The translations under genes and the position numbers were made by a program. From the NCBI GenBank assembly GCA_021818865.1, contig JAKASX010000039.1, positions 1 to 32,473 on the forward strand: a stretch of DNA of 32,473 nt, written 5' to 3'. Below the pieces are notes generated by a model. It was not told the DNA's origin, did not search any database, and was given only the letters and a program-made list of their open reading frames with translations. Positions 1 through 14,331 of the stretch are shown one piece after another. The DNA comes from Acidobacteriota bacterium. GTDB taxonomy: Bacteria > Acidobacteriota > Terriglobia > Acidiferrales > UBA7541. Numbering within the stretch: position 1 is the first letter of the stretch; each line of letters begins with the position of its first letter.

Positions 1-924
1 GCTGCCGAGCCGGTTCGGAACGCCGGCAGCACAAAAATACCGCGGTAAAACCCGCTCAGCATCCCCAAATCAGCCCAAAAGAAAAGAAAAACAGCCACCC
101 AAAGCGATTTTTCAGCAGCCTGCTAGATTCTGGGGAATCCGAGCGTATCGTGACGGATTCTGGGAAATTGTTCGAAGTCCGGTCGGAACGCTGCTGACAC
201 CAACGCCAATGAAGGAGGTTCCGCCTCTGGGAGGCCTACTCGTCATCGCGATTTGAAGGTTGTGTGGGCAAATGAAAGCAAATGTTCTACCGAGAAACCA
301 GATGGCCTCTGTGACCAAAGTCGCAGACTCTTCATTCAGGGGACTCTACGTTAGGCGGTGTTACCGAGCGACGTGGCCAAGGGGACTCACACCTACTCAG
401 TTGCTCAAATTCAGCTCAAACCGTCCGAGCGTCCCGCTCGGCGGACTCGACCAAACGAGGGAGAAAGAGACTGGTGTGGTAGTAGGCGTGTGGGTCCCGG
501 CCACTCGCAGGCCCTGCGGGATGGATTTCTGGGTGAATTCAAGCGGTTGAATATTTGAGGGGTGTCGAGTTCTACCTGCCGAATCATTACTTTCGTGGCC
601 GAAAGTTGCATTCACCCCAATCTGCTGGAGTCCAGGCGTGACTGCCGATGAGCGGATTGGTGAACCTGAAGGCGGGTCGTTTAGGGGACCTCTCGCACGT
701 GGGCACGACGGTGATCTGCTTGCGGATGAAGTTTCTGGCGATCGCGGTCGTATTGTGAAAGCGTTTTGCCAGTGGCACTGGCCCTTGAGAACAGTTTCAG
801 GTTCGCTCCGAGCGCCGAAAAAAGCTGCCCATGTCTATTCCGATCTACCGGCAATAAGCCGAGATCCTCTCGTCCGGGTTCCTCAACCCCCGGTTTATGA
901 GCAGCACCGCTGCATCAGCTATAA
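1..924. other. non-coding or decayed accessory stretch
   Basis: No open frame here reads like a conserved protein on either strand, and the short frames lack ribosome sites and family motifs. The stretch opens with a small hairpin (7-bp arms GCTGCCG/CGGCAGC at 1-7 and 24-30) and holds the tandem IS21-like repeats listed separately. Base composition is less GC-biased than in the genes that follow, as expected for decayed mobile DNA. The remnant at 925-1238 belongs to the same patch. Confidence 0.5.
126..168. repeat. tandem terminal-type repeats, possible IS21-family end
   Basis: GATTCTGGGGAAT (126-138) recurs as GATTCTGGGAAAT (156-168), 12 of 13 identical and exactly 30 bp apart. Multiple short repeats at each end are a known trait of IS21-family elements, and the wording resembles ends of that family as I remember them. 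No istA or istB is recognisable and the opposite end was not found, so this would be a solo end or relic. The assignment to IS21 is inference; the repeat itself is directly visible. Confidence 0.35.
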
Positions 925-1238
925 GCCTGGCTGTATGGAGCTAAACCGTTGAAGAAACAGGTTGGGGCGTGGAAGGGAGCCCGCCTTCCAGACGAAGCGG
1001 CGAAACTGGTCATCTACCTGGCATTCATCCAGGGGGAGTTGGATGTCCCCAGGCACCTGGCCCGCCGCTCCACGACCTGTATTTCAGTCCACAGGTCGAG
1101 GAATTCGCTCCGAGGACGACCTGGAGTCTCTCCCATGCGTTCACGAGCGCGTTTGAGGAACTCGACCCGATCCGGCAGTTCAAAGCAACCGCCAAGCCAG
1201 GGCCATTTCTCGAGTTGGCGAGCGCTGGCGTGAACTGA
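925..1238 (+). pseudogene. frameshifted C-terminal remnant of a DUF932-like protein
   Basis: Two frames together read as one protein tail. From 925 to about 1068 one frame gives LPDEAAKLVIYLAFIQGEL then DVPRHLARR. A one-base loss near 1067 shifts it, and the next frame gives HDLYFSPQVEEFAPRTTWSL, then SHAFTSAFEELDPIRQF, ending at TGA 1236-1238. The EEF..RT.WSL..AFT block is typical of the C-terminus of DUF932-type phage/plasmid-associated proteins. The frame is closed by a TAA at 922-924, so the N-terminal two thirds are missing. A TTG at 949 could open the first half but no ribosome site is seen. I read it as a degraded gene; the family name is recalled, not searched. Confidence 0.5.
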
Positions 1239-1253
1239 TCGTTCCGGAGTGAC

Positions 1254-1269
1254 CTCCCGCTGATGGGAG
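1254..1269 (+). terminator. weak hairpin after the DUF932-like remnant
   Basis: CTCCC (1254-1258) and GGGAG (1265-1269) form a 5-bp stem with a 6-nt loop, followed by only three T residues. It lies 16 bp beyond the pseudogene stop, where its terminator would be expected. The stem is short and the T tract poor, so this is a tentative call. Confidence 0.2.
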
Positions 1270-1419
1270 TTTAGAGCGATTATTCACATCTGAAATTGCA
1301 GAGAACGAGGCGCTCGACTGTATGGAGCGGAGCGCCGGGGGAGCCGTGACGGTCTTGAAGCCATTTGTCGGCGTGAGTGGGTTGCTAACCCTCTCACACG
1401 ACCTCGAACGGATTTCAGA

Positions 1420-4107
1420 TTACTCACTCCGAAGCGCCGTCGCCGGATCGACGCGCATGGCTCGCGAGGCGGGGATGTAGCAGGCGACGAGGACGACGGC
1501 GGCGAGCAAAACGCACCCGCCCGCCAGCGTGAACGGGTCGTTACCGGAAACGCCGACAAGGAACCTGCCTACCACCCGCCCCGCGGCAAGGGAAAGCAGC
1601 AAACCCAACGCCAGTCCGATGGAGACGATGAGGAGTCCCTGGCGCAAAATCATCCACCGAACCTGGTCTGGCCGCGCTCCGATAGCCATACGAACGCCGA
1701 TTTCGTGGGTCTTCTGGCTCGCGGCACTGGAAACTACGCCGTAAACCCCAATCACGACTAACACCAAACCTAAGAACCCGAGTGTGCCCGACAGCGCCGC
1801 GGCAAGCCGAAAAATCCGAAGACCTTCAATTCCGCCGACCGACTGATCCATCGTTTGAGCACCAAAAATCGGCAGGCTCGGGGCCAGAGCCGCGATTTGG
1901 CCACGTAGCGTTTCCAGCATCGACGCCGCGGGCAGCGAACTGCGAACCAGGACCGTCCCGAGCGAGAAATAGTGCTGCGCGAGCGGAACGTAGTAATAGG
2001 GCTGCACGGGCGCGAAGATGCTCTGGTATTTCCCGTTCTTGGCGACTCCAACCACTTCGATCCGGCGGCCCGGTTTCGAGGCCCGGGAGAAATGTTGGCC
2101 GATTGGATTCTGTTTCGGCCAGAACGTGTTGGCCATTGTCTGGTTGATCACGGCCACGAGCTGGGCGTGGGCATCGTCGGCCTGGGTGAAGGAACGGCCG
2201 CGAAGGATGGGAATGTGCAAGGTCTGGAAGTAACCGGGGGTGATGTTGGAAAAGGACACTGCAGGCATTTGTTGCCCCTGCGGCGGCTGGTAGCCGGGAA
2301 CCGCGATTTGGTCGTTCCTGAAAACGGAACCGAGTGGAACGCAGCACGACTCGCTGGCCGAGCGGACAGCGGGCAGCGCCCGCAGGCGGCGAAGCAGCTC
2401 CGTGTAAAATTCCTGGCCCCGGGTGTCGGTGTAACCTGCTTCGTGCGGGTCCATGCTTACTGTAACGACGTGATGCGGATCGAAGCCGAGGTTGATTTGC
2501 CCGGCATTATCCATGCTGCGTACGAACGAGCCCGCAACGACCAGGAGCGTCAGCGATCCCGCCACCTCGGCTATCACCAACGTGCTCCGCAGCCGCTGCC
2601 GCCGGCCTGCGCGTTGGCCTCCTTCATGCAAGGTTTCGTTCAGATTGGTGCGCGAGGCGCGAAACGCGGGCACGATGCCCACCGCCAGCCCGCAGAGAAG
2701 CGCGATCGCCAAGCCGTAGGCGAAAACTGTCCAATCAGGCTTGAGACCAAGGGACAGCGGCACGCCGAAGTGCAAATCGACTGAGTCCATTCTCGCGGCG
2801 ACCCATCCTCCGACACAGACGCCGACCAAACCACCGGCAAGCCCGATCAGGACGGTTTCAACAACCAACTGGCGGACGAGCCGGAATCGCGTTGCTCCGA
2901 GCGCGGCTCGCAAGGCCATCTCCCGTTGCCGCGCCATCGCCCGCACTAGCACGACCCCAGCGACGTTGATGCACGCCAGCACGAGCACGACGAGCGCCAG
3001 CACGAGAAAAAGTGCGGCCATGCTCATTATCGGCCGCTCCGCTCCGAAGCCAAATTTGCTCAAGATTTCCGGCGTAAGGGTAAGCTGGATGTTCCGGTCG
3101 CTTTTCGGATGGGCTTGCGCCAGACGGGCGGCGACCACGCGCAGTGCGGCGTGGGCTCGCTCGAGACTGATCCCAGGCCGGAGCCGCGCCAGGACCGAGA
3201 AATTTCGATAACTTCGGTCTGTCGTGAAGTTTTTCGAAAGCCATCCCTCCCTTGCCAGCATGTCCAAAGGCAGGTACGCCTGTACGTCCAAGGGCCATTG
3301 GAGCCCGTGAAACTTTTTCGGCGCCACTCCGACAATCGTCACCGGCTGGCCGTCGATCGAAGCTGCCCTGCCGACCATGTTTAGGTCACCGGCGAAATGA
3401 ACTTTCCAATAGGAGTACCCGAGCACCAGAACAGGATCGACGCCGGGGAACTTGCCTTCGGAAGGCAACAGCAGCCTACCGAGCGCCGGCTTGAGCCCGA
3501 GAACCGTGAAGCAATTCCCGGTGACGTAGTTGGTTACGACCCTATCGGGACGGCCGTGGACACGCAATCCGTCCAGACCCGTCCTATGTGCCACCAGGCC
3601 GGAAAAGATGCCGGTGGTCTGGCGGCGGATGTCTCGGAAATCAGGATAAGACAGAAGCTGCGACGCTGGCTGGCCTTCTTGCCTCATGCCCAGAACCACC
3701 AACTCCCTTGGGGCAGGCGCTGGCAATGGTCGAAGCAGAAGCCCGTCGACCATGCTGAAAATGGTCGTGTTTGCGCCAACGCCGATTGCCAGCGTCAGCA
3801 CCGTGGCGAGCGTGAAGCCTGGCGATTTGCGCAGCATTCGCAGCCCGAAGCGGAAATCCTGGAGCAGCGTTTCCACCCACACAAATCCCCACGCCGCGCG
3901 CACGTCCTCCTCGACCTGTAGCTCGTTGCCGAGCGCGCGATGCGCAGCATGACCGGCTTCTTCGGGAGACAGGCCCGCCGCCCGCTGTTCCTCGGCTTCT
4001 AGCTCGAGATGACCCCGCAGCTCACGGGCAAGGTCCGCTTCACGCGCTCGCCGGCGATACCAGGGAAACCAGGAAAGCCAGGATTCGAGCCTGCGCCAGA
4101 CCCCCAC
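1420..4107 (-). CDS. ADOP-type ABC transporter permease (MacB/FtsX), distal copy
   Basis: About 895 residues in the layout of acidobacterial duplicated orphan permeases: a charged N-terminal block ([19 protein letters not shown], then a HLELEAEEQ helix), a first MacB-like periplasmic core followed by an FtsX membrane domain, then a second copy. The first transmembrane helix follows [10 protein letters not shown], and the C-terminus ends in the usual PA.RAMRVDP.TALR. An ATG-like opening exists farther upstream (TTG at 4158), but I choose GTG 4107. It has GGGGAGGG just upstream, and the surrounding bases match the real start of the next permease. It is the last gene of padR-ADOP-ADOP, about 83 bp after its paralogue. 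No ATPase gene is nearby, hence orphan. The substrate is unknown; export or lipid/lipoprotein handling is possible. Confidence 0.9.
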   Translation of the reverse strand: MGVWRRLESWLSWFPWYRRRAREADLARELRGHLELEAEEQRAAGLSPEEAGHAAHRALGNELQVEEDVRAAWGFVWVETLLQDFRFGLRMLRKSPGFTLATVLTLAIGVGANTTIFSMVDGLLLRPLPAPAPRELVVLGMRQEGQPASQLLSYPDFRDIRRQTTGIFSGLVAHRTGLDGLRVHGRPDRVVTNYVTGNCFTVLGLKPALGRLLLPSEGKFPGVDPVLVLGYSYWKVHFAGDLNMVGRAASIDGQPVTIVGVAPKKFHGLQWPLDVQAYLPLDMLAREGWLSKNFTTDRSYRNFSVLARLRPGISLERAHAALRVVAARLAQAHPKSDRNIQLTLTPEILSKFGFGAERPIMSMAALFLVLALVVLVLACINVAGVVLVRAMARQREMALRAALGATRFRLVRQLVVETVLIGLAGGLVGVCVGGWVAARMDSVDLHFGVPLSLGLKPDWTVFAYGLAIALLCGLAVGIVPAFRASRTNLNETLHEGGQRAGRRQRLRSTLVIAEVAGSLTLLVVAGSFVRSMDNAGQINLGFDPHHVVTVSMDPHEAGYTDTRGQEFYTELLRRLRALPAVRSASESCCVPLGSVFRNDQIAVPGYQPPQGQQMPAVSFSNITPGYFQTLHIPILRGRSFTQADDAHAQLVAVINQTMANTFWPKQNPIGQHFSRASKPGRRIEVVGVAKNGKYQSIFAPVQPYYYVPLAQHYFSLGTVLVRSSLPAASMLETLRGQIAALAPSLPIFGAQTMDQSVGGIEGLRIFRLAAALSGTLGFLGLVLVVIGVYGVVSSAASQKTHEIGVRMAIGARPDQVRWMILRQGLLIVSIGLALGLLLSLAAGRVVGRFLVGVSGNDPFTLAGGCVLLAAVVLVACYIPASRAMRVDPATALRSE

Positions 4108-4123
4108 GTCATCCCTCCCCGGC
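3814..4123 (-). repeat. 310-bp direct repeat, copy 1 (start of distal ADOP gene)
   Basis: This block aligns without gaps to 6561-6870 (constant offset 2747). By eye about 19-20 bases differ, roughly 94% identity. It covers the ribosome-binding region, the start codon and about the first 98 codons. Immediately beyond it the two genes diverge strongly even in protein sequence. Confidence 0.85.
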
Positions 4124-4190
4124 GAAATCTGGCCACCGATGGTCCTGCGGGGGACCAAGTACGGGACACCAGCCGCTGGTCACCGTTACC

Positions 4191-6854
4191 TCACTCCTGT
4201 CTCAGCGCGGCCATGGGATCGACGCGCATGGCCCGCCGAGCAGGTACGTAGCACGCCAGCAGCGTCACCGCGCACAGAATCGCCGCAACCGCGCCGAAGA
4301 TCAAGGGATCGGTCGGCTTGATGCCGTAGAGCAGGCTCGACAAGAGGCGCACCAAGGTCAGCGAGACAAGGATTCCAGTTCCGAGCCCCAGCAAAGCCGG
4401 CATCATTCCTTGGCCTACCACCCGCCCGAGCACATCCATCTTTTGCGCGCCCAGCGCCATGCGAATGCCAATTTCATGGGTGCGCCGCGCAACCGAATAG
4501 GAAACCACGCCGTAAATTCCCAAGCACGCCAGAAGAAGCGCAGCAACAGCGAAGACAGATGTCAGCAACATCTCGAATCGCCGCGGCGCGAGTGAACTGG
4601 ATACGATTTGGCCCATCGTGCGTACAGGCGGAACGGCCACGCTCGAATCCACTCGCCAGATTGCGCGCCGCAACTCCAGAGCGACCGCAGCGCCGGGCAT
4701 GCGGGTGCGGAAGATGAGCGATCCTGTCATTCCGCCGCCGTAGAGTGCATACACCATCGGCGTTGGCCCTTTGGAAAGCGTCACGCTACGAGTATCGCCG
4801 ACAACCCCGACAACGTGGAGCACCCCAGGGTCCCCGTCAAATTTCTGGCCGATGGGATCGAGGCCCGGCCAAATAGTCTCGGCAGCATTGGCGGAAATCA
4901 CCACCGCGCCGGTGTCTGCATCAGCCCACGTCAAACGTCGGCCGCGCACCAGTGGAATCTCGAGCGTCCGAAAATACCCGGGGCTTACGTAGCGGTAGCT
5001 GGCGAACGGGCGCTCAGCGATAGGCCGCGTATCACCAGGCAAGTTCACTGGATCGTCGTCTATTTCGCCGCCGGGAGGCAGCCGACTGGTAACCGCGGAG
5101 GATTCCACGGCGGGCAGCGCGGCCGTAGTCACCAGCAGCCGGCGCCAGAATTCGCTACGCTGCTCCCTTCGCGTATATTCCGCCGAAGGCAATTGCAGGT
5201 TCAGGGTCACGATGTGCTCGACGGTAAAGCCCTTCGGTGCCCGCTCGAGCTTCGCAAAACTCGTAAGAAACAACCCCGCCGCGATCAGCAGCATGGCCCC
5301 AAGGGCCGTCTCGATCCCGACCATCGCTTCGCGTGCGCGCAGCCCAGCCCCCCGGTCCGTGCTCCGCGTGCTCGCCGAGCGCAACGCGTCCTGCGGATTG
5401 GCTCTCGCCATCCGCCATGCCCCCAGTAAGCCCGCCGCCACTCCTGCCAAAACCGAGATACCCAGCGTAAAAACCAGCACCACGCCGTCGAGGCGAACGT
5501 TGTGCAGCCGTGGCAACCCTGCCGGCGCCATCGCCAGCAGCGCCCAAAGTGCCCAGCGTGCCAAAACGAGCCCCAGCGCTCCGCCCGCGAGCCCTAGCAG
5601 CAGCGTCTCCGCCAGCGTCTGCCGCAACAAGCGGCCGCGGCTCGCTCCCAGCGCGCTCCGAATCGCCGCCTCCTGCTCTCCGGCGGCCGCGCGCGTCAAA
5701 ATAAGGCTCGCCAGATTCACGCAGATGATGAGCATCACCGCCAGCACCGCCGCGAGTAGCATCCAAAGTCCCCGCTCAGATGACCGCACGATCATGCCGT
5801 GCAGCGGCGTCACAACCGCCGTTGGGTAAGGCAATGGGAACGACTGCGAACGAAAAAGCCGACTCAAAATCACATTCAATTCCGCAGTGGCCTGAGCTCG
5901 GCTCACGCCCGGCCTAAGCCTCGCAATTGCGGCGATCCCGAAGCCAGCATCCGCCGCCAGGTCCGACTTCCCGAAAACTTCTGGCACGAAAAGTTCTGGC
6001 TTTGGCGTGGGACCCATGACAGACATCAATTGATTCCCTTGGAAAAAGTGGAATGACGCCGGCAGAACGCCCACTACGCTATACGGAATTCTATTCAATG
6101 CGATCGCATGCCCGATGATGCCGGGGTTGCTGTGGAATCGGTTTCGCCACAGGGCGTTTGTGAGAATCACCTCATGGTTTCGGCCGGGCTGATCCGCATC
6201 TTCCGAAAAATTGCGCCCAAGCAGCAGCCTGACGCCCAGAACGTCGAGCAGGTTCGCACTTACCGAGTCCGCGTTCATCAGCGCGGGCTCTCCGCGCCCC
6301 GTCAGATTCAAGCTGCCGCCCACCTCGACTGCCGCGATTCCCGCCAGCGACTTCGCCTGATGTGCCCAGGCCACGTAGGACGCCGGATTCGGAGGAATCA
6401 CCGGAAATTTCCGCGCAAACTGAGGCACGGCCAGTTCGACAGTGACCAACTGGCTGGGGTGAGGAAATTCGAGTGGGCGTAAAAGCACACCGTTGACGAT
6501 GGAGAAGATAGCCGTATTCGCCGCCAACCCCAGAGCCAGCGTGAGAATTGCAATGGCGGCGAAGCCTGGTGATTTGCGCAGCATTCGCAGCCCGTAGCGG
6601 AAATCCTGGAGCAGAGTTTCCACCCACATAAATCCCCACGCCGCGCGCACGTCCTCCTCGACCTGTAGCTCGTTACCGAGCGCGCGACGCGCCGCATGGG
6701 CGGCTTCGTCTGGAGTCAGGCCCACCGCCCGCTGTTCCTCGGCTTCTAGCTCGAGATGATCCCGCAGCTCACGGGCAAGGTCCGCTTCACGCGCTCGCCG
6801 GCGATACCAGGGAAACCAGGAAAGCCAGGATTTGAGCCTGCGCCGGATTCCCAT
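4191..6854 (-). CDS. ADOP-type ABC transporter permease (MacB/FtsX), proximal copy
   Basis: 887 residues with the same plan as the distal copy: N-terminal charged helix region (residues 1-85), a first membrane helix near 100-120 ([20 protein letters not shown]), a MacB periplasmic core, three FtsX helices near 370-475, a second periplasmic core, and three C-terminal helices ending in [17 protein letters not shown]. The ATG at 6854 has a GGGGAGGG ribosome site. It follows the padR stop codon by a single base, so translation is probably coupled. PadR repressors next to ADOP permeases are a recurrent acidobacterial arrangement. The transported molecule is unknown. Apart from the first 98 codons the protein is clearly diverged from its neighbour, so the two probably have different specificities. 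Confidence 0.9.
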
Positions 6855-6870
6855 GTCATCCCTCCCCGGC
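6561..6870 (-). repeat. 310-bp direct repeat, copy 2 (start of proximal ADOP gene)
   Basis: Partner of 3814-4123. The copy spans the end of padR, the ribosome site, the ATG and the first 98 codons of the proximal permease. Confidence 0.85.
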
Positions 6871-7212
6871 AGGTTCCATCACCCGGCCGATCGACGCCAC
6901 CAGCCGGCGCCATTCGGAACGCTCCGCGGTCAGCTGCTTTTTCCCGGCGGGCGTGAGCCGGTAATACTTGAACTCGCGCTTCCCGCCCTTGGGTATCTCC
7001 CATTTCGAGACGACCCAGCCTCGGCGCTCCAGCCGATGCAGCGCCGGATAGAGCGAGCCATGCTCGACCTGCAACACGTCGTCGGTGGTGCGCTGGATGT
7101 GCTTCGCGATTTCGTGGCCGTTCGCGGCACCGAACAGAAGAGTCCGCAGAATCAGCATATCGAGTGTGCCTTTCATCAGTTCGATTCGGTTTGAGCAGTC
7201 TTTCTTCGGCAT
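6856..7212 (-). CDS. PadR-family transcriptional repressor
   Basis: 118 residues, the usual size of a short PadR protein. [17 protein letters not shown] opens the winged helix. [20 protein letters not shown] holds the recognition helix, followed by the PadR signature [15 protein letters not shown]. The wing is [15 protein letters not shown] and a short C-terminal dimerisation helix ends the protein. It is the first gene of a three-gene operon and ends one base before the ADOP start. An inverted repeat lies in its own promoter, so autorepression with relief by an unknown ligand or membrane stress is likely. It starts at ATG 7212, which is preceded by a -10-like hexamer rather than a Shine-Dalgarno. 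Confidence 0.93.
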
Positions 7213-7219
7213 GGTCGAA

Positions 7220-7249
7220 ATCCTACCCCAAATCAGGGTAGAAGTTCAA
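7220..7249 (-). promoter_or_regulatory. candidate padR operon promoter
   Basis: On the minus strand TTGAAC (7244-7249) and TAGGAT (7220-7225) are separated by 18 bp. Only 7 nt lie between the -10 hexamer and the padR ATG, so the transcript would begin at or within a base or two of the start codon. The promoter is assigned by eye only. Confidence 0.4.
7223..7241. promoter_or_regulatory. candidate PadR operator, CTACCC-N7-GGGTAG
   Basis: Perfect 6-bp inverted arms at 7223-7228 and 7236-7241, with a 7-bp spacer. The repeat fills the space between the proposed -35 and -10 of padR and overlaps the -10 by three bases, where a bound dimer would block polymerase. PadR proteins bind short inverted repeats in their own promoters. 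Assignment to this PadR is inference from position. Confidence 0.5.
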
Positions 7250-7321
7250 CCATCATTTGACTAACCCGCTGGCCGAGCCCACTCGAGGCGACCCCCAGAG
7301 CCACCGCCTTCAAGGAGAGCT

Positions 7322-8077
7322 GTGATGACCTGTATTGTCTGCGGTTGCCGCATCGAGGAGGCGCGCCCGGGGCAGCCACCACTTGTGGCGAAGTATTGCC
7401 GTCCGTGCCGAACAGAGCGTCGGCGACAGGCAAAAGCCATATACGTCTGGCACCCGCAATACGAGGACTACTTGCGAGCGCAGTACCACGGCGGGCTGAA
7501 CAGAAGAATTCGGGTGCTCAATTGGATGGTGCGCGAAACTGGTTTGCCGCGCTGGTACATCAAACGCCAAGCCGCACGCCTGGGCCTGACGATGCACATG
7601 GACCGCACGCCCTGGACGGATGCGGAAACGGATCTCCTGGAAAGGCTGGTCGGCCGGCTCTCGACCGCGACCATCGCCAAGCGTTTACATCGACCGGAAA
7701 GCTCGGTCGTCAACAAACTGAAGCGCATGGGCACGTCACGGCGTGTGCGCGAAGGTTACACAATGAGAGACCTTGAGATGTGCTTTGGCGAGGACCATCA
7801 CAAGATCGCTGGATGGACAAAGAACGGTTGGCTCCGTGATCGACTGCAAGGCACGCGACGCCACGACGGCAATGGCAATGACATTCACCGCATCCGCGAA
7901 AAAGATGTCCTGGCCTTTCTAAAGGCCCACCCGGAAGAGATCAACCTGGGCAAAGTGGACCAAACCTGGTTCCTGGATCTCGTGTTGCTGCGAGGCCGCG
8001 AACTGCACGAAGGAAGGCCATCCCACCAAACGGGGATCCGCGAAGACCAACCCCCGAGTAAGAATGCCGTGGATTAA
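7322..8077 (+). CDS. zinc-ribbon and multi-HTH DNA-binding protein
   Basis: 251 residues, function unknown. Two CxxC pairs (C4/C7 and C26/C29) with a basic tail make a zinc ribbon at residues 1-35. An HTH-like segment follows at about 60-90. Residues 95-138 resemble a SANT/Myb-like helix-turn-helix (WTDAETDLLERL ... TIAKRLHRPESSVVNKLKRMG). Residues 148-200 (MRDLEMCFGEDHHKIAGWTK ... IREKDVLAFLKAHPE) look like a MerR/excisionase-type DNA reader. The start is GTG 7322 or ATG 7325; AAGGAG near 7310 suits either. It is divergent from padR. Together with the attachment-like repeats and the tRNA fragment just downstream, it looks like cargo or a regulator of an integrated element. No catalytic domain is visible. 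Confidence 0.75.
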   Translation: MMTCIVCGCRIEEARPGQPPLVAKYCRPCRTERRRQAKAIYVWHPQYEDYLRAQYHGGLNRRIRVLNWMVRETGLPRWYIKRQAARLGLTMHMDRTPWTDAETDLLERLVGRLSTATIAKRLHRPESSVVNKLKRMGTSRRVREGYTMRDLEMCFGEDHHKIAGWTKNGWLRDRLQGTRRHDGNGNDIHRIREKDVLAFLKAHPEEINLGKVDQTWFLDLVLLRGRELHEGRPSHQTGIREDQPPSKNAVD

Positions 8078-8147
8078 CGGGCGATCTTGGAGTGGGCCAA
8101 GCATGCGTTTGTTACACTCAGGTGCGCGAGTGGTCAAACCTCTCCAC

Positions 8148-8164
8148 TGTCACAAAATTGTCAC
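8148..8164. repeat. TGTCAC direct repeats, attachment-arm-like
   Basis: TGTCAC occurs at 8148-8153 and again at 8159-8164, an 11-bp period (one helical turn), in an AT-rich context. Evenly phased short direct repeats beside a tRNA fragment resemble arm-type binding sites of tyrosine integrases. The functional reading is inference. Confidence 0.4.
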
Positions 8165-8216
8165 TAAAATTGGCGCAAAACAGGCAAAAACAGCGAAAAT
8201 TAGGAGAAGCTCAATT

Positions 8217-8254
8217 TTCAGCTAAATGACAGCTGGCAAAGGGATTTAGCTGAA
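8217..8254. repeat. 11-bp inverted repeat, AT-rich
   Basis: TTCAGCTAAAT (8217-8227) and ATTTAGCTGAA (8244-8254) are perfect reverse complements with a 16-nt spacer. AATTTTCA flanks the structure on the left (8213-8220) and again on the right (8253-8260). It could act as a bidirectional terminator between the convergent flanking genes, or as a protein-binding element of an attachment site. Confidence 0.6.
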
Positions 8255-8286
8255 TTTTCAACCAGTTGGGCAAGCAGCGAAATCGC

Positions 8287-8326
8287 TTTTCAAGACCGCC
8301 GGTTTCAACCACTCACCCACTCCTCC
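8287..8326 (-). pseudogene. 5' half of a tRNA-Ser(UGA) gene
   Basis: Read on the minus strand from 8326, forty bases match a serine tRNA: acceptor strand GGAGGAG, T8 G9, a D arm (GGT...ACC around AGTGGTTGAAA), then anticodon stem GCGGT and loop CTTGAAA with anticodon TGA. The next bases should be ACCGC to close the anticodon stem but are AGCGA. No variable arm, T arm or CTCCTCC acceptor strand follows in this region. The gene is therefore broken immediately 3' of the anticodon loop, a classic crossover position for tyrosine integrases. It cannot yield a functional tRNA as it stands. Confidence 0.75.
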
Positions 8327-8429
8327 ACGGAGGGTGCCAGGAGTGATTGTAGACCGTGGGGTGGTTCTTAGAAATGAAGATCGGCGGGGTGGTTGCATGG
8401 GCGGGGTGACGCGGAGGGCGGCGAAGGGC

Positions 8430-11013: not shown

Positions 11014-11391
11014 TTACAAGGAGCGACGGCGATTGCGCGCCCGCGGACGATTTGGAGCTTTTCGAGTTAGAAACTTATGGGCCATCCCGAGCAAGTCTCG
11101 CAACGCATCCGGATTCAGTTTGGATAGCCGGACGAGAACGCACTCATATGGAAGATAGTGGTCCGTCACGTAGTAGGTGTCAGGCGCTTCGGCGAGTAAC
11201 GCGGCGCGGTCGTCCAAATCCACGCAAACGGCGAGCGAATCGGGCTCGGCGGAACGGTGAGTGGGGATACAGGCGAGGAGTTTGCCGCGAACCTTGAGCG
11301 CGGGGGAACCGTAAGCGGTGCTCTCCTCGACGCCGGGGAAAGCAAGCCCGATTTTTCGGACGACGTCGAAGGTGATCGTTTTCTCCGGCAT
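11014..11391 (-). CDS. MmcQ/YjbR-fold protein
   Basis: About 125 residues, the normal length for this family. Characteristic features are VVRKIGLAFPGVEESTAYGS at the start, PALKVRGKLLACIP in the middle, and the ETYYVTDHYL-like segment (DTYYVTDHYLPYECVLVRLS) near the end, followed by the LRDLLGMAHK helix. The fold is CyaY-like and usually annotated as a DNA-binding protein, but its biochemical role is unsettled. I place the start at ATG 11391 because family members begin a few residues before ITFDVVRKI. A longer reading from ATG 11466 adds 25 atypical residues. It lies 105 bp after the kinase gene on the same strand and may be co-transcribed. Confidence 0.85.
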   Translation of the reverse strand: MPEKTITFDVVRKIGLAFPGVEESTAYGSPALKVRGKLLACIPTHRSAEPDSLAVCVDLDDRAALLAEAPDTYYVTDHYLPYECVLVRLSKLNPDALRDLLGMAHKFLTRKAPNRPRARNRRRSL

Positions 11392-11496
11392 CGGTGAACC
11401 GTCCGAAGTTTCCTGCCGAGGCGGCTTCGTGGTGATTATCCTCGGCAGCGCAATTCGTTTCAACATACGTTTGGAAAGTCGGGGCGCAGATCCAAG

Positions 11497-14331
11497 TCAG
11501 CGGGTGGAGGGATTGGAGGATTGGAGGAGAATCACGTCGGAGCTGGACTGCCCCCGCTGGAGGGCCAGATTTTTACCGTCAGGCGACCAGGCGAAGTACG
11601 CGATCTGTCCCGAGCTAAAGCGGGTGATCTGGCGTCCTTTCGAGCCATCGAGCGGCTCGACCCAGAGATTGTCGACGCCGTTTACTTCGATGGGATAAGC
11701 GACGGCTTTGCCATCCGGTGTGAACGAGAGCCAGGCACTCGTCGTTCGTGGGTCCACGTCCAACAGGCGCGGCGAGGATTTTCCTCCGCCTGACAGATCA
11801 ATCAGGGCAAGTTTCGTCGAAGCGGTATTTGCCCCCACGTTCAAAAGCGCGGTGAGCATGGCCAGCGTTTTACCGTCAGGCGAGAGTGCGATTGTGAGGG
11901 GCAATGAATTCGGGATCGCCGTGCCGGGAACGACCTCGGCTGAGCTGCCAGCGACCGGTACGCGCATGACGCGGCCTTGTTGGGTATCGTCGTAATAGAC
12001 CCACTTCCCGTCCGGCGAACAGAGGGGAGACAGGTCCCAGGTGCCATGGGTAAGCCGCACCGGATTCGAGCCGTCGGCATCTGCGCGCCAAATGCTGGTT
12101 TTTTCGGTTTCGTGGAAGGGCCAGTCGAAGACGATGTATTTCCCACCCGCGCAAGCCGATGGCAAAACGGTTTGGGCGGAGGGATCGTCCACCAGTGTCA
12201 CGGAACCCGTGCGGTCGATTGGCGTGCGCAGGATCCGGCCTGCCTGCGCGACGAGCAGGTGATGATTCCCCGTCCAGCCAAGGCCAAGAATGGGTTCCCT
12301 GCTGGGAATCCCGGGAACGGGTACGGGCGCGCCATTTCCGGAAGCGGACAAAATATCGATTTGTGCGGAGGATTGCACCTGGACTGTGGCGAGGCTTTTT
12401 CCATTGCCGGAAAGCGTGAGCGTGGAATAGCTGTTCGTGTCGTTGGTGACGGTGCGGAACTGGCCGCCGGGGTAGGAGAGATAGCCGATCTGCATTCCCA
12501 GGCCGGTTTGTGGGTTGAGCAGCATATGGGAATAGATCATCAGCAGGCCAGCGCCATCGGGCGGCCAGGCCAATTCGAACGGGGCCTTTTCGGCGAATCT
12601 GGCGAATGATTTCAGATGGCCGCTCGCCAGATCGAACATATCGATTCCGCCGCGCGCGCCCGCGGGGAGAACCAGGCTGCAAGCGATCCGTTTTCCATCC
12701 GGGGACCACGCCATATAGAGACAGCCCCATCCGCCGGGCGCCACCAATCGGACATTTTCTTCCGAGCCGTCGGCATGGGCGGTGAGCAGACGCCATTTCC
12801 CGACCACCGGGGCGTTGAAGCGGGCGTAGGCGATCCGTTTGCCGCCGGGGGAAAACGTGATGTTCGAATCGATATTCCGGACGATGACGCGCGGCGTTCC
12901 GCCGAGCAAGGGAGCGCGATACAGATTGAACGTATTCTGCTGGCTGTTCGTGGCCTCGCGGAAATAGATGTGATTGCCGCCGGGCGAAAAGGCGAGGGTT
13001 GCGAACAGGACGGGAGCCGGTGGAAGAATTTGCGTGTTGCTGCCGGTGGGAATATTGCGCAGCCAGAGGCTCTCGTCGCCTCCGGAGTTCTTGACGCTCA
13101 GAAGGAATTTGCCGTCGGGAGAAATGGCGGCTTGGGACTCATCGCCGGAATTCGTGAGTTGGGAGATGGTGAAATTCTGGAATGGCGCCGGCGCGGCAGA
13201 ACCCGTGCGCGCGGGAGCGAAAAAGGAATAGACGCCCCAGGCCGCGGCAGCGAGAACGGCGAGCACGACGACCGCTCCCGCCAGAACGGCCGATTTGTGG
13301 CGCCGCGCGACCGCGACAACGGCCGAACTGCCGGAGCCGGGCGCGGAGGCAGTTGCCGCACTGGGCGAAGGCGTGTCGGGTGATGACTTTAAATCCGCTC
13401 CGGCGATGGATGACGAGGATGCGGGCTGGGTAGCCGCAGAGCGTCCCGAGCCGGTGTCGCGCTTGAGACGCTCGAGATCGGCGTGCAAGTCGGCGGCGTG
13501 CTGGTAGCGGAGTTTCCGGTCCTTTTCCAGCGCTTTGAGAATGATGCGCTCGAAGTCCGGCGGCAGATCGGGATTGAGACGCACGGGACTCGGCGGGGCC
13601 GAATACTGGATCGCGCCGAAGATGGCTCCGCCGGTGTCGCCGCGGAACGGGAGAACGCCGGTAGCCATCTCGTAGAGCACCACGCCGAAAGAGAACAGAT
13701 CGGTGCGCGCGTCGAGTTCTTCGCCGCGAACCTGCTCGGGCGACATGTAAGCGACCGTGCCGACGGTTGTGCCGGGACTGGTGAGTTGTTCGGGCGAAAC
13801 GCCGAGGGTGGCCGTGGGAAGATTTTCGGCGTGAGGTTGCACCTTGCTGACTTTCGCCAGGCCGAAATCGAGAATTTTCGCCTGGCCGCGCTCGGTGACG
13901 AAGATGTTCGCCGGTTTGATGTCGCGATGAACGATGCCTTCGGCGTGGGCGGCGTCGAGTGCATCGGCGATTTGCGAGGCCAGATCGAGCAGCACTTCGA
14001 TTTTCATCGGGCGGCCGGCAATCCGCGAGGCGAGCGAGTGGCCGCGGAGCAACTCCATGGCGATGAAGGATTGGTTGTTGTGCCGGCCGATTTCGTAGAT
14101 GGTGCAAATGTTGGGATGGTTGAGCGCAGCGGCGGCGCGAGCCTCGCGCTGGAAGCGTTCGAGGGCCTGGGGATTATTCGAAACGTCCGCGGGAAGGAAT
14201 TTCAGGGCGACCTGACGGCCCAGATCGACGTCTTCGGCGCGATAGACCACACCCATGCCGCCGCCACCGAGACGCTCGATGACGTGGTAGTGAGAGATCG
14301 TTTGGTCAATCCGTGCGGAAGAATCGTCCAC
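11497..14331 (-). CDS. membrane Ser/Thr protein kinase with PD40/TolB-like propeller sensor
   Basis: 944 residues. The N-terminal PknB-type kinase is complete: glycine loop LGGGGMG (21-27), lysine K44 (VALKFL), helix-C E63, catalytic HRDIKPAN (135-142) with D137, DFG (155-157) and SPEQ of the activation segment (197-200). A low-complexity Ser/Pro/Ala juxtamembrane stretch (about 295-335) leads to one membrane helix near 348-371. The extracytoplasmic part holds about eight repeats of the SPDGK/SPGGK kind (from 404 to the end), a TolB/PD40 beta-propeller probably sensing a protein or glycan. This architecture is expanded in Acidobacteriota. The start is GTG 14331, supported by a promoter immediately upstream and the absence of a Shine-Dalgarno. 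It is divergent from the STAS gene. Confidence 0.93.

What the first reader, a model, noticed from the sequence alone, without database searches (positions are those of the whole stretch)
8148..8326. tRNA-Ser(UGA) broken at the anticodon loop beside attachment-like repeats
Seen: forty bases matching the 5' half of a serine tRNA stop exactly after the anticodon loop. They are followed on that strand by AT-rich DNA with an 11-bp inverted repeat and TGTCAC direct repeats phased at 11 bp. Known: tyrosine integrases cross over in tRNA anticodon loops and bind phased arm-type repeats. Inference: this is one end of an integrated element (att-like junction), with the nearby DNA-binding protein as residual cargo. 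It is odd that the 5' half is left rather than the usual 3' half. That implies the element supplied the 5' part, or that a later deletion removed the 3' half.
Basis: partly seen in the sequence, partly recalled or inferred. Interest (0 to 1): 0.65.

Follow-up and report, generated by a model that had tools for sequence, protein, structure and literature searches.

The report
Mobile element end splitting tRNA-Ser
The half-tRNA in this acidobacterial contig is one end of an inserted mobile DNA element that cut an essential serine tRNA gene at its anticodon loop and, unusually for bacteria, rebuilt it by supplying the front half, probably with a new promoter; the same design recurs across related soil bacteria.

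Summary
Window 8326→8287 (minus strand) is the exact 5' half (40 nt) of tRNA-Ser(UGA), ending at the anticodon loop, and no tRNA is intact in the window. The other end of the insertion lies in the same genome at C121:42249-42338, an intact, single-copy tRNA-Ser(UGA). A tyrosine integrase gene on the same strand stops 4 bp upstream of it. Joining the host side of the window to the host side of C121 gives a sequence that matches, without a gap at the junction, an uninterrupted tRNA-Ser(UGA) locus in a congener (84% over 409 bp). The paired motif GTGACA-N5-GTGACA occurs exactly twice in the 3.97-Mb genome, once at each junction. The attL module recurs 28 times in 25 of 95 order-level genomes, 23 of them after a tRNA-Ser 5' half; 12 of 14 integrase relatives end beside an intact tRNA-Ser. 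Elements restoring the 5' half are a known minority (159 of 3919 in Islander). This is a new, well-resolved clade of that kind, not a new mechanism. The covarying inverted repeat in attL has no proven role.

The parts
8287..8326 (-). displaced host 5' half of tRNA-Ser(UGA), ending just past the anticodon loop; the att core
   Evidence: identical 40/40 to the intact tRNA at G000:C121:42249-42338; no complete tRNA in the window
8327..8400 (-). original host promoter side of the tRNA gene (contains TACAAT), host flank
   Evidence: aligns at about 84% to the upstream flank of the uninterrupted tRNA-Ser(UGA) in G002:C270; similarity resumes at 11051-12421 (79-91%)
8140..8288 (-). attL module of the element (the stretch covered by model R1)
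   Evidence: conserved in 28 places in 25 of 95 genomes; E=2.5e-25 at this site (the site is in the training set)
8217..8254 (.). 11-bp inverted repeat (8217-8227 / 8244-8254) around the near-invariant core CTAAATCCCTTTGCCAGC (8232-8249, minus strand)
   Evidence: core (17 nt) absent from 395 other genomes sampled across the phylum
8148..8164 (-). phased pair GTGACA-N5-GTGACA, candidate integrase arm-type sites
   Evidence: only two occurrences in 3.97 Mb, here and inside the integrase 3' end at C121:42421-42437, identical over 17/17 nt
8111..8116 (-). third, inverted, degenerate copy (TGTAAC; TGTCAC in most relatives)
   Evidence: alignment
1..8286 (.). element interior in this contig (contig ends at 1); the other end is C121:42339-56684
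   Evidence: absent from the uninterrupted locus of G002
7322..8077 (+). cargo DNA-binding protein (251 aa), weak match to a phage-type transcriptional regulator
   Evidence: PHROG 323, 1.8e-11; patchy in the family
6856..7212 (-). cargo: PadR-type regulator
   Evidence: PF03551
4191..6854 (-). cargo: MacB/FtsX-type ABC permease
   Evidence: PF12704 and PF02687
1420..4158 (-). cargo: MacB/FtsX-type ABC permease
   Evidence: PF12704 and PF02687

Best explanation
Window 8140-8326 is attL of an integrated mobile element (genomic island, at least 22.6 kb, split over contigs C12 and C121) in an acidobacterium. SHOWN: the element sits in the anticodon loop of the only tRNA-Ser(UGA) gene. The host's own promoter and 5' half stay in the window, cut off. 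At the other end an element-borne 5' half is joined to the host 3' half, giving an intact tRNA 4 bp after the integrase stop codon. INFERRED from the integrase family: its tyrosine integrase recombines attP, which carries a 40-nt copy of the tRNA 5' half, with the chromosomal gene across the 7-bp anticodon loop, and binds phased GTGACA arm sites on both sides, one set lying inside its own 3' coding end. INFERRED: the restored tRNA is transcribed from element DNA, either from a -10-like box at the element's end or by read-through from integrase. The inverted repeat in attL is probably a further protein-binding site that controls directionality (weakest step).
For: Uninterrupted locus in congener G002: its upstream flank matches the window and its downstream flank matches C121; the joined sequence aligns at 84% over 409 bp with no gap at the junction. 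The 40-nt direct repeat is identical at both ends. Integrase P0001 has Pfam PF00589 (9.7e-32) with the R, HTLRH, GH and Y catalytic motifs. GTGACA-N5-GTGACA occurs exactly twice in the genome, once at each junction, with zero matches for the reversed-pattern control. Across 15 right ends carrying integrase or its remnant, 14 hold the arm pair (or a one-base variant), 10 at exactly -99 from the tRNA; the G035 element has the altered motif GTCACA at both its ends. 23 of 28 attL modules follow a tRNA-Ser 5' half (18 UGA, 5 GCU) broken at the same place. 12 of 14 full-length integrase relatives end immediately upstream of an intact tRNA-Ser (UGA, GCU or CGA), including relatives 46-53% identical in other families of the class. 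In G035 both ends lie on one contig, 25.4 kb apart, same orientation.
Against: The two ends of the window genome's element lie on different contigs and its middle is not assembled, so their physical linkage there is inferred from the congener site, the motif and G035. No excised circle, expression or binding data. The sigma-70 scan found no good promoter immediately before the restored tRNA; the -10-like box is by eye and is missing in some relatives. The arm pair is absent in one remnant and in the distant G324 relative.
Confidence: 0.93

Rival explanations
1. The half gene is a relic of an ordinary island whose 3' half was later deleted; the intact tRNA in C121 is an independent duplicate.
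For: Most tRNA islands leave a 3' fragment (PMC4383910), so a 5' fragment is unexpected.
Against: The host 3' half and its downstream flank are found in C121 in the order expected from the uninterrupted congener locus. The same 5'-half-plus-attL junction recurs in more than 20 genomes. An integrase ends 4 bp upstream of the intact gene.
Confidence: 0.02
2. Split or permuted tRNA gene, or intron in the anticodon loop, expressed by trans-splicing or intron removal.
For: The break is at the anticodon loop, as for tRNA introns and split tRNAs.
Against: A complete tRNA-Ser(UGA) exists elsewhere in the genome; no 3' half follows in the window; no Rfam match other than tRNA in the sources searched; the downstream module is shared with integrase elements.
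Confidence: 0.01
3. Assembly chimera joining a tRNA end to unrelated DNA.
For: The window is from a fragmented draft assembly of 165 contigs.
Against: The same junction is found independently in many genomes, with the same breakpoint and the same conserved 180 bp.
Confidence: 0.01
4. The conserved attL inverted repeat works as a folded single strand (as in integron attC sites) or as an RNA, rather than as a duplex protein site.
For: Arms covary: 5 of 10 pairs have changes on both sides, 90% of cells paired, above every shuffle for three of five measures and above all slid controls. Short integrase-less intervals with a conserved attL exist, some holding a single sizeable ORF.
Against: A palindromic duplex binding site gives the same covariation; the consensus RNA fold is weak (-3.7 kcal/mol); arms are partly lost in the window's own genus; short elements look like deletion remnants whose right ends keep mainly the last 35-50 bp.
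Confidence: 0.08

Closest known systems
Genomic islands in tRNA genes with a 5' tDNA fragment (Islander, PMC4383910)
   Same: tyrosine integrase, anticodon-loop crossover, fragment and intact gene flank the island, same orientation, displaced piece is the 5' fragment
   Different: a rare class there (159 of 3919). Here a clade-wide rule for one tRNA-Ser integrase lineage in Acidobacteriota, with a conserved attL module and arm sites inside the integrase 3' end
pTN3-type archaeal integrases (reviewed in PMC8371274)
   Same: att site in the 5' half of a tRNA gene, so the restored tRNA comes under element-side transcription
   Different: in pTN3 the integrase gene itself is split on integration. 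Here the integrase ORF stays whole and stops 4 bp before the tRNA; bacterial; sequence kinship to pTN3 integrase was not tested
HP1-like and other anticodon-loop tyrosine integrases that carry the 3' half
   Same: tyrosine recombinase domain and anticodon-loop core (HP1 integrase 1aih matched at 5.4e-12)
   Different: opposite polarity: those keep the host promoter and replace the 3' half (from general knowledge and PMC8371274)

Membership tests
tDNA genomic island (Islander definition) | intact tRNA gene and a cognate end fragment flank the element in the same orientation | tested here: met
   shown on one contig for G035; on two contigs for the window genome
tDNA genomic island (Islander definition) | integrase (PF00589) inside the island | tested here: met
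   PF00589 at 9.7e-32, beside the restored tRNA
tDNA genomic island (Islander definition) | 5' fragment lies upstream of the intact gene | tested here: met
tDNA genomic island (Islander definition) | a related genome has the uninterrupted site (extra test, not part of Islander's filters) | tested here: met
   G002:C270
tyrosine recombinase | catalytic R, HxxR, H and Y motifs | tested here: met
   TGLR, HTLRH, LLGH, MRY read in the translation; domain match
heterobivalent phage-type integrase | arm-type sites bound on both sides of the core | tested here: inconclusive
   sequence pattern strongly supports arms; no binding assay possible
conjugative element or prophage | relaxase/T4SS or capsid/terminase genes | tested here: inconclusive
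   none seen among the ORFs scanned, but not every ORF was scanned and the middle of the window's element is not assembled
integron cassette / attC | folded single-strand recombination site used by IntI | not testable with these tools
   covarying inverted repeat only

The most novel reading that the evidence does not exclude
A lineage of tyrosine integrases, spread across at least the class, is committed to replacing the promoter and 5' half of serine tRNA genes, so the host's essential tRNA comes under element control. Its attL carries a dedicated covarying inverted-repeat site of unknown partner that may also let short integrase-less pieces move in trans.
Probability: 0.2. Interest if true: 0.65.

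Novelty: new member of a known kind. Interest (0 to 1): 0.42.

Why it matters
Bacterial elements that restore the 5' half of a tRNA gene are rare in the literature read here, and such elements replace the host tRNA's promoter. This clade gives many examples, with an uninterrupted site, arm motifs that change together at both ends, and three serine tRNA targets, so the rules of polarity and the cost of re-promoting an essential tRNA can be tested. The conserved attL module is also a marker for finding islands in Acidobacteriota drafts that tools requiring an integrase and at least 2 kb would miss.

Tried and rejected
Rfam: nothing but tRNA in the sources searched. Viral contigs: one close integrase relative, again beside tRNA-Ser(UGA); the core motif is absent there. 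Phage and plasmid records: integrase relatives only below 60% identity, best rows about 35%. I first read the half at G030:C3 as tRNA-Cys; with its full length it is a decayed tRNA-Ser(GCU) half, so the Cys reading is dropped. The idea that short intervals (about 1-3 kb) are active cassettes was considered and not adopted: their right ends mostly lack the -99/-88 arm pair and keep only the tRNA-proximal stretch. Structure prediction was not used because it would not decide between the explanations. Williams 2002 is not held.

Full report
OBSERVATION. The minus strand of 8326-8287 is exactly the first 40 nt of tRNA-Ser(UGA), ending one base past the anticodon loop. ARAGORN sees no tRNA in the window.

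OTHER END. The window is the whole of contig C12 of a 3.97-Mb, 165-contig draft genome. The only full tRNA-Ser(UGA) found in that genome is C121:42249-42338. Directly upstream, same strand, stopping 4 bp before the tRNA, is a 361-aa tyrosine integrase. The 40-nt 5' halves at the two places are identical.

UNINTERRUPTED SITE. In congener G002 one contig (C270) carries an intact tRNA-Ser(UGA) whose upstream flank matches the window and whose downstream flank matches C121 over 4.5 kb. Joining the window's host side to C121's host side gives a sequence that aligns through the junction without a gap there, 84% over 409 bp. So the window keeps the original promoter and 5' half, while the working gene is element 5' half plus host 3' half. 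No base of the displaced half has changed while the flanks differ by about 15% from G002, which suggests (inference) an insertion after the species split.

ARMS. GTGACA-N5-GTGACA occurs twice in the genome, at the two junctions, identical over 17 nt; the reversed-pattern control gives zero. In right ends with integrase or its remnant, the pair or a one-base variant is present in 14 of 15 and sits at -99 in 10; in the window's genome it lies within the last codons of integrase. In G035 both ends carry GTCACA instead, as expected if one protein reads both. Binding itself is inferred.

RECURRENCE. The attL module was found in 28 places in 25 of 95 order-level genomes, all within the window's family. 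23 follow a tRNA-Ser 5' half, 18 UGA and 5 GCU. 12 of 14 full-length integrase relatives (the window genome's own included) end next to an intact tRNA-Ser; the class-level ones are 46-53% identical and use UGA, GCU and CGA genes. The exceptions are G009:C163 and the first of two tandem integrases in G311, the second of which does adjoin tRNA-Ser(CGA). A complete example, G035:C46, spans 25.4 kb. Named loci from the close relatives are Acidobacteriota draft genomes.

ATTL INVERTED REPEAT. Across 15 aligned modules the arms GCTATCTGAC/GTCAGATAGC surround a strongly conserved AACTAAATCCCTTTGCCAGC. 90% of cells pair and 5 of 10 pairs show changes on both sides, above all slid controls. The 17-nt core is absent from 395 other genomes sampled across the phylum. 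This shows a maintained dyad, not its partner; a directionality-factor or host-protein site is the simplest guess.

CARGO. Window side: two MacB/FtsX permeases, a PadR regulator and a DNA-binding protein. C121 side: a DUF6094 methyltransferase, a helicase with weak DpdE resemblance, another permease and a Gp3-like protein. G035 carries DarT and DarG. Integrase is the only gene shared between the window genome's element and G035's at the threshold used.

LITERATURE. Islander counted 3760 islands with 3' fragments and 159 with 5' fragments (PMC4383910). A review of archaeal recombinases says pTN3-type integrases use the 5' half and that this is seldom met in bacteria (PMC8371274). Hence a known minority kind; I found no description of this clade in the papers searched, which cover only open-licence texts.

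LIMITS. Draft metagenome-type assemblies; element middle missing; no experiment; some remnant calls rest on short matches. E-values from the covariance model are rough and 15 of its hits are its own training sequences.

Noticed in passing
L063:1994 (G026:C24) and L072:2062 (G029:C5:37062): A second kind of junction: tRNA-Ser(UGA) 5' half followed by a different conserved sequence with AGTACT inverted repeats; no P0001-like integrase found in the roughly 18-kb G029 interval.
   Followed up: partly
G000:C121:42158-42181: A perfect 24-nt copy of the tRNA-Ser 3' end lies 67 bp downstream of the intact gene, degenerate in G002; possibly a scar of a conventional 3'-type element.
   Followed up: no
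G003:C80:41904-41961 (L013): Only a broken, partly decayed 5' half was found in G003; no intact tRNA-Ser(UGA) in its assembly, perhaps an assembly gap.
   Followed up: partly
L061, L062, L063, L064, L077: Short intervals (about 1-3 kb) between a broken half with attL and the next tRNA half, without integrase; contents include a PIN-domain protein (L064) and a Band-7 protein (L062).
   Followed up: partly
L059:8175-9931: DarT-DarG toxin-antitoxin pair as cargo of the G035 element, with a DUF4062 protein, a Mutator transposase and an AAA/RNase H-like protein in the same element.
   Followed up: partly
L109 / L111 (G311:C61:55442-58111): Two related integrases in tandem before a tRNA-Ser(CGA), suggesting stacked elements.
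   Followed up: no
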